A model generated the notes under the pieces. The model saw only the letters and a list, made by a program, of their open reading frames with translations, ran no database searches and was not told the DNA's origin. Below are positions 56,102-58,562 of a stretch of 64,000 nucleotides of DNA, piece by piece. The first letter of the stretch is position 1. Each line of letters starts with the position of its first letter. The stretch is taken from assembly GCA_017306155.1 (NCBI GenBank), contig JAFKJB010000017.1, positions 32,045 to 96,044 of the forward strand, in the 5' to 3' direction. Both the position numbers and the translations under genes were made by a program. Source of the stretch: Nitrosospira multiformis (GTDB lineage: Bacteria > Pseudomonadota > Gammaproteobacteria > Burkholderiales > Nitrosomonadaceae).

Positions 56102-58087
56102 ATGATGAAAAACAGGGTCAATTTGCATTTTGGAGGCAATTCACACCAGATGGGGCGGATTGCTGATAAGAGCGAATTCCCTTGGTATCAATCTCGCAGG
56201 TTCAATATTTTCGGGCTCGTATTTATGACGAGCGCTGCTATCAGTCTCGCTTACGTTTACAGCCAGCCGGCAATTTATCGCAGCAGCGCGACATTGCTTA
56301 CTTCGGCCATGACGCCGATCGACCAGCAGAGCGATGATGCCGATATCCAGCACGTTGCAATCCAGCGCCAGATCCTGCTGGGACGGGAGCTTGCTGCCGA
56401 AACCCTGGCGAAATTGAAGGCTTCTTCCGCCGGCAAATCTCTATATCGGTTGACTGAATCCGATATTCAGACTTTATTGGCCGTCGAGCCCGTTCCCGAA
56501 ACCAACCTCGTCGAGGTCACGGCGGAAGGCCCGGATCCCCGTTTTTTGCCTTTGCTCATCAATACATGGATAGACGTATACCTGGAGGCGCGAGGTGACG
56601 AAGTAAAACGTTTGAAGAGCAATACTGAACGTATTGTCGAGGATGAGCTGGAGGGATTGGCTGACAAGGTTACTGCGGCGAGAGCGGCGCTGGAGGCCTT
56701 CCGCGAAAATAACAACATTCTATCGACGGAGCGCGATGAGAATGAACCGTCAGCCCGGTTAAAGGGGCTGAATGAGTCGCTTAACAAGGCTTCTGAGGCT
56801 GAGGTCAAGGCGAAAGCGGAACTGGATGCTATCAGGGCCGCAATTGCCCGGGGAAAGGCAGTGGTTCCGGACGACGAGAAAATCAGCCTGGCCGACCTCG
56901 AGAAGCGTCTGCATGATTCACGTGAAAAACTGGCGGAATTCGATAAAAAATTTACCCGCGAGTACTTAAATCTACAACCCGACTTGAAATCTCTCCCTGA
57001 GCAGATCAGGGAACTCGAGACTGCTATCGACAATAAGCGGTTGCGTGGTCAAAATGTAGTCCTGAACGAGGCCGAGGTAAATTATGCGGCCGCACGACAG
57101 ACTGTCAGGGATATTCGCGAGCAATTAGGCGAGCACAAGCAGCGGGCATCGGTCTTCGCGACAAAATTTACCCAGCACGAGGCGTTGAAGAGCGATCTGG
57201 AAGGGCTGGAAAAGCTGTACCGGGATACGCAGGAACGGCTGGTACAGGTAAAAACCGGCCGCAAGGACAAATATCCACAGGTCGATGTGATCAGCAGGGC
57301 GTATGAATCAAAGGAGCCGGTTAGGCCGAATTACAGTCGTGAAGCCTTGATAGCGCTCACCGGTTCCCTGCTGCTGGGGTTGATCAGCGTGTGGGTTTTT
57401 GAGTATTTGACCCAAAAGAAGGAACAACAGCCTTCCATTGCGGTATTCGGTGTGGAGAGATATACCCCGCCTGCTGCCGAACTGATCGATCATCCTCATA
57501 CCGCGCTCGGGGTCAAACCCGAACCGTTAGAGCAGAAAACAAACTTTGCCTTGTCAAAACCGGTGCACAGGGAACTTTCGAGTCATCAGTTACGGGTCCT
57601 GATCAACGCTGCCAGCCTGAAAGGAAAGCAGCTTATCGGCTTGCTGCTCAGTGGCCTCGACATCGATGAGGCGGCATCGTTGAAGGCGAATCAGCTCGAT
57701 GAGCGTGCCAATGTCATCAACCTCGACGGAAGGTCTCCGAGGACGGTGCCGCTCAGCAGCCCGCTCAAATCCCTGTTCCGGCAATCTGGCAATCGTCCGG
57801 TATGGGACCCGGATGATTCGCAGACCCGGGTCGATCTGTCAACAGCGCTGGTTTGCGCCGTAATCGATTCAGGATTGCCTGATCCCCGGGAAATCACGGC
57901 CGAGACAGTCCGGCATAGCTACATTACTTATCTTGTGCGCCAAGGCTTGCGGCTGTCCGATCTGGAGCAGATCGTCGGTCATCTGGATCCTTCGGTGATT
58001 TCGAGTTACAGCGCTTATTCGCCCCCACAGCAGGGCCGGCCGCTGTACGAGATCGAAGTGCTGCATCCTGCGTTGCTCGTAATCTGA
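56102..58087 (+). CDS. GumC/Wzz chain-length protein fused to a degenerate tyrosine-recombinase-like domain
   Basis: 661 residues from the ATG at 56102; the frame is open from 56018. The first part is a polysaccharide co-polymerase: TM1 at about 34-54, a long periplasmic coiled coil (about 180-390), a Wzz-type Pro motif (EPVRPNYS) and TM2 at about 414-435. Instead of the BY-kinase of Wzc proteins, the cytoplasmic part (about 491-650) resembles a phage-integrase catalytic domain: LLLSGLDIDEAASL, VRHSYITYLVRQGL, IVGHLDPSVISSY. In that alignment Arg I is replaced by Asp520 and the HxxR His by Glu601, while Arg604, His627 and Tyr636 are kept. Recombinase activity is therefore unlikely; a structural or DNA/protein-binding role is possible. 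No other polysaccharide gene is adjacent. Confidence 0.8.
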   Translation: MMKNRVNLHFGGNSHQMGRIADKSEFPWYQSRRFNIFGLVFMTSAAISLAYVYSQPAIYRSSATLLTSAMTPIDQQSDDADIQHVAIQRQILLGRELAAETLAKLKASSAGKSLYRLTESDIQTLLAVEPVPETNLVEVTAEGPDPRFLPLLINTWIDVYLEARGDEVKRLKSNTERIVEDELEGLADKVTAARAALEAFRENNNILSTERDENEPSARLKGLNESLNKASEAEVKAKAELDAIRAAIARGKAVVPDDEKISLADLEKRLHDSREKLAEFDKKFTREYLNLQPDLKSLPEQIRELETAIDNKRLRGQNVVLNEAEVNYAAARQTVRDIREQLGEHKQRASVFATKFTQHEALKSDLEGLEKLYRDTQERLVQVKTGRKDKYPQVDVISRAYESKEPVRPNYSREALIALTGSLLLGLISVWVFEYLTQKKEQQPSIAVFGVERYTPPAAELIDHPHTALGVKPEPLEQKTNFALSKPVHRELSSHQLRVLINAASLKGKQLIGLLLSGLDIDEAASLKANQLDERANVINLDGRSPRTVPLSSPLKSLFRQSGNRPVWDPDDSQTRVDLSTALVCAVIDSGLPDPREITAETVRHSYITYLVRQGLRLSDLEQIVGHLDPSVISSYSAYSPPQQGRPLYEIEVLHPALLVI

Positions 58088-58199: not shown

Positions 58200-58562
58200 T
58201 CAGCCCACTGTCTTCACCGGGCCATGATCGTCGCAATGGTCATCATGAGGATAGTGAAGATGGCCTCCGACCAGGTAATCCACATGATCTCCGTGAGGCA
58301 CGGCTTCGTGACCGCAGTCCGGGCCGTGTACATGTCCTTGCGCGTGACCTTCGCATTCATGTCCAGGGGTACAGCGCTGGGGGTTGGTCTTACTAACGTC
58401 TATGACATGCTCATCGATATGGTTGCCGTGCGGGTAGTGCAGATGGCCATCATGGAGGTAGCAGACATGGTCATCGTGGGTGACGCCAGTGTGACCGCAT
58501 TCCGGACCGTGGGGATGGGTATGATTTTCATGCTGTGGCAGGATACAATTAGAGTTTGCCAT
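58200..58562 (-). CDS. His-rich metal-binding protein with internal duplication
   Basis: 120 residues with no signal peptide. Two homologous halves each contain HGP(E/D)CGH, then DHV.YL..GHLHYPH and a final D(D/E)H cluster. Together they have over 30 His plus several Cys, so metal binding (Zn, Ni, Co or Cu) is very likely, as a cytosolic buffer or chaperone. The gene converges with the chain-length/recombinase fusion gene. A reasonable GGAGAAAAG precedes the ATG. Confidence 0.8.
   Translation of the reverse strand: MANSNCILPQHENHTHPHGPECGHTGVTHDDHVCYLHDGHLHYPHGNHIDEHVIDVSKTNPQRCTPGHECEGHAQGHVHGPDCGHEAVPHGDHVDYLVGGHLHYPHDDHCDDHGPVKTVG

What the first reader, a model, noticed from the sequence alone, without database searches (positions are those of the whole stretch)
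56102..58087. Polysaccharide chain-length protein fused to a degenerate tyrosine-recombinase-like domain
A GumC/Wzz-type inner-membrane co-polymerase carries, in place of the usual C-terminal tyrosine kinase, a cytoplasmic domain that aligns with the integrase catalytic region (GLDIDEA, VRHSY, IVGH, then Tyr636). Arg I (Asp520) and the HxxR His (Glu601) are replaced while Arg604, His627 and Tyr636 remain. This would place a DNA-recombinase fold at the membrane with a polysaccharide assembly factor, perhaps as a binding or regulatory module. I do not recall a described system with this architecture. No frameshift or stop separates the halves.
Basis: partly seen in the sequence, partly recalled or inferred. 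Interest (0 to 1): 0.88.

Follow-up and report, generated by a model that had tools for sequence, protein, structure and literature searches.

The report
Dead recombinase fused to polysaccharide co-polymerase
A membrane protein of the kind that helps bacteria build surface polysaccharides carries, at its inner end, what looks like a disabled copy of a DNA-cutting recombinase domain; the fusion is conserved in ammonia- and methane-oxidising bacteria and may have been recruited for something other than handling DNA.

Summary
Window 56102-58087 (+) encodes one 661-aa protein: a polysaccharide co-polymerase of the Wzz/Wzc type, a disordered linker, and a tyrosine-recombinase catalytic fold (model pLDDT 95; best PDB hits XerA and P2 integrase). 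It is no assembly error: the architecture recurs in Nitrosospira, part of Nitrosomonas, many methanotrophs of one gammaproteobacterial order, and a few other genomes. The domain is under purifying selection but looks catalytically dead: in 102 aligned rows (some identical) Arg I and the HxxR histidine are never kept, while Arg II (94) and the Tyr (91) mostly are. It is acidic (mean net charge -5.5, against +6.1 in 30 true recombinases) and lacks a core-binding domain, so DNA binding seems unlikely. The gene is an orphan, yet in Nitrosomonadaceae its presence matches exosortase XrtA almost perfectly (47 both, 1 fusion only, 2 XrtA only, 75 neither). The tie is looser in the methanotroph order (52/25/15/109). 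Best reading: an extra co-polymerase of XrtA-type exopolysaccharide systems, in which a domesticated pseudo-recombinase fills the cytoplasmic slot usually held by a tyrosine kinase, acting as a protein-binding or oligomerisation module. That last step is inference. My searches of open-licence papers found no description of this architecture.

The parts
56102..58087 (+). whole gene: Wzz-type co-polymerase fused to a pseudo tyrosine-recombinase domain (661 aa plus stop)
   Evidence: single open frame; most relatives of the same genus align from residue 1-3 to 658-661
56195..56263 (+). first transmembrane helix, residues 32-54
   Evidence: helix 32-54 in the AlphaFold2 model and hydrophobic sequence; membrane placement inferred from the family
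56264..57331 (+). periplasmic part, residues 55-410, mostly long helices; most conserved part
   Evidence: profile of 41 sequences hits Wzc in PDB; full model hits Wzc, WzzE and KpsE, with low TM-scores; dN/dS 0.05-0.10 for residues 27-439 in 13 pairs
57317..57412 (+). Pro-rich motif (P406, P409) and second transmembrane helix, residues 406-437
   Evidence: P406 in 98%, P409 in 100% of 56 sequences; helix 411-437
57413..57568 (+). flexible cytoplasmic linker, residues 438-489
   Evidence: pLDDT under 50 for 439-486; least conserved part
57569..58084 (+). tyrosine-recombinase catalytic domain, apparently dead, with C-terminal tail, residues 490-661
   Evidence: model pLDDT 95.1, pTM 0.91; Foldseek XerA 5hxy E 7.2e-6, P2 integrase 5c6k 3.9e-5
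57659..57661 (+). Asp520 at the Arg I position
   Evidence: no Arg in any of 102 rows (T 56, S 35, D 4, N 2, A 2, K 1, L 1, G 1)
57902..57904 (+). Glu601 at the HxxR histidine position
   Evidence: no His in any of 102 rows, one of them a gap
57911..57913 (+). Arg604 at the Arg II position
   Evidence: Arg in 94 of 102 rows
58007..58009 (+). Tyr636 at the nucleophile position
   Evidence: Tyr in 91 of 102 rows, Phe in 6

Best explanation
It is an extra polysaccharide co-polymerase that works with XrtA (exosortase A, PEP-CTERM) exopolysaccharide systems. Two membrane helices hold a long helical periplasmic body of the Wzz/Wzc type. The cytoplasmic slot that carries a tyrosine kinase in Wzc carries instead, on a flexible 50-residue linker, a tyrosine-recombinase catalytic domain that apparently lost recombination before the sampled lineages split and was kept for its fold. 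Shown by computation here: the architecture and its spread, the absence of Arg I and of the HxxR His, purifying selection on the domain, its acidic charge, and the phyletic tie to XrtA in Nitrosomonadaceae. Inferred: the domain faces the cytoplasm, does not bind DNA, and acts as a protein-binding or oligomerisation module (recombinases assemble as cyclic tetramers by handing their C-terminal tail to a neighbour, which is recalled; the tail here holds a conserved Pro656), so tuning assembly of the co-polymerase and hence of the XrtA-linked polysaccharide. The domain is not needed for every member: one clade keeps the co-polymerase half without it.
For: Fold of both halves. Arg I and HxxR His absent in 102 of 102 rows, and in 56 of 56 sequences that are under 95% alike. 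Purifying selection: in 13 close pairs (some share a sequence) dN/dS of the domain is 0.03-0.21, lower than that of the linker (0.08-0.37) in 13 of 13, higher than that of the Wzz half (0.05-0.10) in 12 of 13. Charge: family -5.5, sd 3.0 (102 rows, 2 above zero) against +6.1, sd 2.5 in 30 recombinases from five genomes, picked by an intact HxxR-H/W-Y pattern. XrtA: of 125 Nitrosomonadaceae genomes 47 have both, 1 fusion only, 2 XrtA only, 75 neither; the 1 (G033) has its XrtA match split over two adjoining frames, the 2 are 75% and 80% complete; the 40 genomes with only weaker exosortase hits all lack the fusion. On a single-gene rpoB tree of 79 of the 125 the fusion needs 7 changes, at least 5 forced by supported branches, and XrtA differs from it in one genome, G061. 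Class sample of 369: XrtA over cut-off in 73, and in 5 of the 6 genomes with both halves. Four carriers of other families (G438, G215, G179, G1010) all have XrtA over cut-off. The XrtA locus of the own genome has its own chain-length protein and kinase, so this gene is additional. In Methylomonas LW13 disruption of exosortase epsH lowers EPS (PMC11072679, passages, which cite earlier work).
Against: The gene is not beside XrtA: different contigs in the own genome, and at least about 130 kb apart in the nine genomes that I saw with both on one contig (G013, G075, G079, G088, G094, G096, G097, G100, G105; coordinates compared by eye). Its neighbours are shared only among near relatives. So the link is statistical. 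In the methanotroph order it is loose: 52 both, 25 relative only, 15 XrtA only, 109 neither; 5 of the 25 have no exosortase hit at all; 15 of the 52 are relatives whose match stops before the domain. The class sample's sixth carrier, G373, has only an exosortase hit below the cut-off. No expression, mutant or interaction data. Arg II and Tyr are kept more than a dead enzyme needs, which the reading explains only as fold stability or a new role. Oligomerisation was not modelled. The full-length model has a pTM of 0.38 and its Wzc hits have TM-scores of 0.2-0.3. No catalytically dead but DNA-binding recombinase such as MrpR was used as a charge control. No convincing sigma-54 site.
Confidence: 0.55

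Rival explanations
1. Membrane-tethered DNA-binding regulator: the pseudo-recombinase binds operator DNA, as the SPbeta repressor MrpR does, and the periplasmic Wzz part senses polysaccharide.
For: Recombinase folds without catalysis can be repressors: MrpR (PMC10516654, passages); MrpR, YopR and SroF structures are among the fold hits, at weak E-values of 0.007-0.04.
Against: Domain net charge is above zero in only 2 of 102 rows, against 28 of 30 recombinases (the other two are zero); there is no core-binding domain, only a disordered linker; neighbours are not conserved, so there is no evident target.
Confidence: 0.15
2. Working site-specific recombinase anchored in the membrane.
For: Arg II is kept in 94 and the nucleophile Tyr in 91 of 102 rows.
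Against: Arg I and the HxxR His are absent in 102 of 102 rows, and the hairpin position that I take for the catalytic Lys (recalled) is mostly Ser, Thr or Val.
Confidence: 0.01
3. Passive passenger: the domain was fused by accident and has no role of its own beyond stabilising the protein.
For: One clade kept the Wzz half without the domain (7 proteins read, one clade in the tree).
Against: dN/dS of 0.03-0.21; Gly518, Glu523, Arg547, Asp589 and Gly626 invariant in 56 sequences under 95% alike, with Gly626 kept in 102 and Glu523 and Arg547 in 101 of 102 rows.
Confidence: 0.12
4. Generic exopolysaccharide co-polymerase with no special tie to XrtA; the match in Nitrosomonadaceae reflects shared lifestyle (biofilm against plankton).
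For: Loose match in the methanotroph order; in nine methanotroph loci a glycosyltransferase of family 2 follows directly; streamlined planktonic Nitrosospira lack exosortase together with other matrix genes (PMC9239080, one passage).
Against: Weaker exosortase hits, which I take for other exosortase types, do not follow the fusion in Nitrosomonadaceae: the 40 genomes with only such hits lack it.
Confidence: 0.25

Closest known systems
Wzc / GumC polysaccharide co-polymerases (PCP-2a)
   Same: two membrane helices, long helical periplasmic part, Pro-rich motif before the second helix, C-terminal cytoplasmic domain in the same place; PDB profile and fold hits
   Different: cytoplasmic domain is a recombinase fold without the catalytic set, not a Walker-type tyrosine kinase
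TIGR03007, XrtA-system chain-length determinant
   Same: closest NCBIfam model of the N-terminal half (E 1.1e-13); shares genomes with XrtA
   Different: 50 bits against a cut-off of 279; not in the XrtA locus, which has its own TIGR03007 protein (722 bits); extra C-terminal domain
XerA / XerD / P2 integrase catalytic domain
   Same: fold and core residues
   Different: lacks Arg I, HxxR His and core-binding domain; acidic; part of a membrane protein
MrpR (YopR), SPbeta repressor
   Same: recombinase fold that lost catalysis and took another job
   Different: MrpR keeps a core-binding domain and binds DNA; no membrane part

Membership tests
Polysaccharide co-polymerase (Wzz/Wzc) | two transmembrane helices around a long helical periplasmic domain | tested here: met
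   helices 32-54 and 411-437 with long helices between; profile hit to Wzc. Membrane insertion itself inferred
Polysaccharide co-polymerase (Wzz/Wzc) | Pro-rich motif before the second membrane helix (recalled) | tested here: met
   P406 in 98%, P409 in 100% of 56
Polysaccharide co-polymerase (Wzz/Wzc) | Pfam Wzz / GNVR match | tested here: inconclusive
   absent in P0001 at E up to 1; at E up to 0.01 GNVR in 7 and Wzz in 5 of 46 members
Polysaccharide co-polymerase (Wzz/Wzc) | changes polysaccharide chain length or export | not testable with these tools
   needs a mutant
Bacterial tyrosine kinase (BY-kinase) | Walker A/B kinase domain at the C terminus | tested here: not met
   domain is a recombinase fold
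Active tyrosine recombinase | catalytic Arg I, His (HxxR), Arg II, Tyr | tested here: not met
   Arg I 0, HxxR His 0, Arg II 94, Tyr 91 of 102 rows
Active tyrosine recombinase | core-binding domain | tested here: not met
   only a stretch of pLDDT under 50 at 439-486 before the domain
Active tyrosine recombinase | catalytic-domain fold | tested here: met
XrtA / PEP-CTERM system component | phyletic match with XrtA | tested here: met
   Nitrosomonadaceae 47/1/2/75 of 125; but loose in the methanotroph order, 52/25/15/109 of 201
XrtA / PEP-CTERM system component | encoded in the XrtA locus | tested here: not met
   different contigs in the own genome (C24 and C10); neighbours not conserved

The most novel reading that the evidence does not exclude
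A tyrosine-recombinase fold has been domesticated as a membrane-tethered protein-assembly module: it fills the kinase slot of a polysaccharide co-polymerase, sets the oligomeric state or activity of that ring by recombinase-like cyclic tail exchange, and is a so far unrecognised outlying component of the XrtA exosortase system that moved between methane and ammonia oxidisers.
Probability: 0.3. Interest if true: 0.8.

Novelty: new variant of a known kind. Interest (0 to 1): 0.66.

Why it matters
Recombinase folds recruited for other work are known as phage repressors; my searches found no report of one built into a membrane polysaccharide protein. If the reading holds, it shows a DNA enzyme turned into a cytoplasmic switch or clamp for matrix assembly, adds an unlinked gene to the XrtA/PEP-CTERM system, and gives a shared surface factor of two groups that drive nitrification and methane oxidation. 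Methylotuvimicrobium buryatense carries it, so it can be tested.

Tried and rejected
Active recombinase: rejected on lost catalytic residues. Assembly artefact: rejected by recurrence. Viral or plasmid origin: no relative in viral contigs (20 stretches matched a pattern, none confirmed; this search finds close relatives only) or in 72,556 plasmid records. Tie to ammonia/methane monooxygenase as such: of 11 genomes searched PF02461 hits 5; it is not found in carriers G438, G215, G179 and G562, nor in G000 itself, where I suspect an assembly gap; G1010 was not tested. Sigma-54 promoter as a sign of a PEP-CTERM regulon: only 2 of 56 upstream regions have a best site that fewer than 5% of shuffles reach. 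A first search for control recombinases in held loci printed none, and a first regular expression picked some wrong stretches; the counts used are those. Its 30 controls are the 30 loci given for 63 matches, and the pattern itself demands an intact motif.

Rows dropped: L079 and L082 (broken or cut) before the first alignment. Before the 110-row alignment I left out L086, L088, L122-L124 and L148 (repeats of rows already in) and L092, L125, L127 and L128 (matches to the Wzz half only, from G139, G924 and G723). The 102 rows with the domain are not thinned and include identical ones, such as L126 and L140, and pieces of two broken copies; the eight rows without it are seven domain-less proteins and the first piece of one broken copy. 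L138 and L139 were left out of the tree. rpoB was fetched for 80 of 125 genomes, and G040 (very long branch) was dropped before the counts. The 48 fusion genomes include G017, whose contig edge cuts off the domain. The 77 include 15 whose match stops before the domain (7 of them read, 8 judged by the match end alone) and others cut by contig ends or broken.

Full report
WHAT IS THERE. The frame 56102-58087 (+) is open throughout and encodes 661 aa. By single-sequence scans the C-terminal part matches Phage_integrase just above its cut-off, and the N-terminal part matches the XrtA-system chain-length model TIGR03007 well below its cut-off. Profiles made from relatives help: the C-terminal profile (56 sequences) finds tyrosine recombinases in the PDB with E down to 2.7e-9; the N-terminal profile (41 sequences) finds Wzc at 8.9e-7 over positions 227-430, with coiled-coil proteins behind it at weaker E-values. 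AlphaFold2 gives the C-terminal 172 residues a mean pLDDT of 95.1. Foldseek places this model with XerA (E 7.2e-6, TM 0.69-0.70 by query), P2 integrase and Xer or integron recombinases; lower down, at E 0.007-0.04, come the SPbeta-phage repressors MrpR, YopR and SroF, which have the same fold. The full-length model (mean pLDDT 79.6, pTM 0.38) has confident halves joined by a stretch of pLDDT under 50 at 439-486; it hits Wzc (E 2.5e-9, but TM only 0.2-0.3), WzzE and KpsE with one half and XerA with the other.

IT IS NOT AN ARTEFACT. In the same family 48 of 125 genomes carry it (one, G017, is cut by a contig end), 22 of 23 in the same genus. A scan of one genome per species found 54 loci, in records named Nitrosospira, Nitrosovibrio, Nitrosomonas, Methylobacter, Methylomicrobium, Methylotuvimicrobium, Methylicorpusculum, Methylomonas, methanotrophic symbionts and unclassified gammaproteobacteria. 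In the order of G373, 77 of 201 genomes have a relative; G373 matches Methylotuvimicrobium buryatense 5G by contig position, so I call this the methanotroph order and take it to be Methylococcales. In samples of the class (369) and phylum (398) there are few others: G438, G215 and G179 and G1010 have both halves; G139, G723 and G924 match the Wzz half only. The families of the four did not appear among the listed rows of the order search, but their order is unknown to me. None was found in viral contigs or plasmids.

THE DOMAIN LOOKS DEAD BUT KEPT. In 102 aligned rows that hold the domain (of 110; not thinned), Arg I is never Arg, the HxxR His is never His, the third His is His in 14 (Tyr in 47), Arg II is Arg in 94 and the nucleophile Tyr in 91; Gly626 is invariant, Glu523 and Arg547 are kept in 101. 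In the 56 sequences that are under 95% alike the picture is the same: Arg I 0, HxxR His 0, Arg II 51, Tyr 52. The hairpin position that I take to be the catalytic Lys is mostly Ser, Thr or Val. The naming of these positions is recalled, not computed. In 13 close pairs, some sharing a sequence, dN/dS is 0.05-0.10 for the Wzz half, 0.03-0.21 for the domain and 0.08-0.37 for the linker; the domain is below the linker in 13 of 13 and above the Wzz half in 12 of 13. So the domain is under selection, less strictly than the membrane half.

IT DOES NOT LOOK LIKE A DNA BINDER. Net charge over the matching 150 residues is -5.5 (sd 3.0, range -12 to +1, 2 of 102 above zero); 30 recombinases from five genomes, two Nitrosomonadaceae, two of the methanotroph order and G438, give +6.1 (sd 2.5, range 0 to 10). 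There is no core-binding domain. This argues against the MrpR-like reading but does not exclude it; MrpR itself was not used as a control.

DESCENT. A tree of the Wzz half (107 rows, 94 different) puts the 18 Nitrosospira rows in a fork of 29 (100/100) with Methylobacter-labelled and other methanotroph rows, and Nitrosomonas elsewhere, beside rows labelled Methylococcaceae and Methylomonas (92/90). Identity of the window protein is 61-64% to four of those methanotroph sequences but 45-49% to Nitrosomonas. This suggests transfer between methanotrophs and ammonia oxidisers, perhaps twice; the outermost rows have very long branches, so root and direction are unsure. Seven Wzz-only proteins from one unnamed genus, g283 (I guess Methylomonas), form one clade (100/98) inside the fusion family and stop soon after the linker: most simply a secondary loss.

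CONTEXT. Neighbours are shared only among near relatives. In nine methanotroph loci a family-2 glycosyltransferase follows directly; the one tested is TIGR04283. In the window the neighbours are a 4,5-DOPA-dioxygenase gene and a His-rich ORF, both on the other strand. So the gene probably acts in trans. The strongest clue is phyletic. In Nitrosomonadaceae, XrtA over its cut-off and the fusion occur together in 47 genomes, fusion alone in 1, XrtA alone in 2, neither in 75 of 125. The exceptions look technical: G033 has its XrtA match split over two adjoining frames; the two XrtA-only genomes are 75% and 80% complete. The 40 genomes with only weaker exosortase hits all lack the fusion, so the tie is to XrtA and not to exosortases at large. 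On a quick single-gene rpoB tree of 79 genomes the fusion label needs 7 changes, at least 5 of them forced by supported branches, and XrtA differs from it in one genome only. The four carriers of other families have XrtA, against 73 of 369 in the class sample, where 5 of 6 carriers have it and the sixth, G373, has only a weaker hit. In the methanotroph order the tie is weaker: 52 both, 25 relative only, 15 XrtA only, 109 neither; of the 52, 15 are relatives whose match stops before the domain; of the 25, 20 have a weaker exosortase hit and 5 none. In the own genome the XrtA locus carries its own chain-length protein (TIGR03007, 722 bits), kinase, ATPase and outer-membrane protein. The fusion is therefore an additional co-polymerase.

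HOW IT MOST LIKELY WORKS. Shown: the parts and their conservation. Inferred: the membrane topology puts the pseudo-recombinase in the cytoplasm where Wzc has its kinase; it serves as a docking or oligomerising module, perhaps by the cyclic exchange of C-terminal tails known from recombinases (recalled; the tail here has Pro656 in 98% of 56), and so affects assembly or timing of the XrtA-linked polysaccharide. Four tyrosines (607, 610, 636, 639) are Tyr in over 90% of 56 sequences (in the larger set Tyr639 is Tyr in 76 of 102); phosphorylation by the XrtA-locus kinase is a testable guess, no more.

LITERATURE. Searches for exosortase with chain-length determinant and integrase (none), two of exosortase / co-polymerase / tyrosine recombinase (three papers, listing only, none on this by title and start of abstract), PEP-CTERM with XrtA and chain length (none), Wzz with phage integrase and domain architecture (none), tyrosine recombinase with Wzc (six, listing only, unrelated by title) and chain-length determinant with integrase and Nitrosomonas (none) gave no description. 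Only open-licence PMC papers are searched. I saw passages of PMC11072679, PMC10516654, PMC9239080 and PMC1569441.

Noticed in passing
window 58200-58562 (-): Small ORF with His-rich stretches (HGPECGH-like); no NCBIfam match. ORFs of like size and place in several Nitrosospira relatives (cluster 12) are probably the same gene, though my neighbour script chose an overlapping frame in the window.
   Followed up: partly
L129-L134, L147 (unnamed genus g283): Relatives that keep the co-polymerase half and end soon after the linker: one clade, all seven genomes with XrtA.
   Followed up: yes
L057:9919-10605 and eight other methanotroph loci: Family-2 glycosyltransferase directly downstream (TIGR04283 in L057), in several followed by a fatty-acid-hydroxylase-family gene, and in L051 a TIGR04282 protein.
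   Followed up: partly
G033 contig 16, 19081-19849: XrtA match split over two adjoining frames in the one genome with the fusion but no XrtA over cut-off: frameshift or sequencing error.
   Followed up: no
own genome G000: No match to the ammonia monooxygenase family PF02461 although named close relatives are Nitrosospira; perhaps repeated genes lost in assembly.
   Followed up: no
G000 C4, 76652-80067: A second exosortase hit, below the XrtA cut-off, beside another Wzz-like protein and apart from the XrtA locus on C10.
   Followed up: partly
L139 (G570) and L138 (G626): Copies interrupted by a frame change or stop; described only.
   Followed up: no
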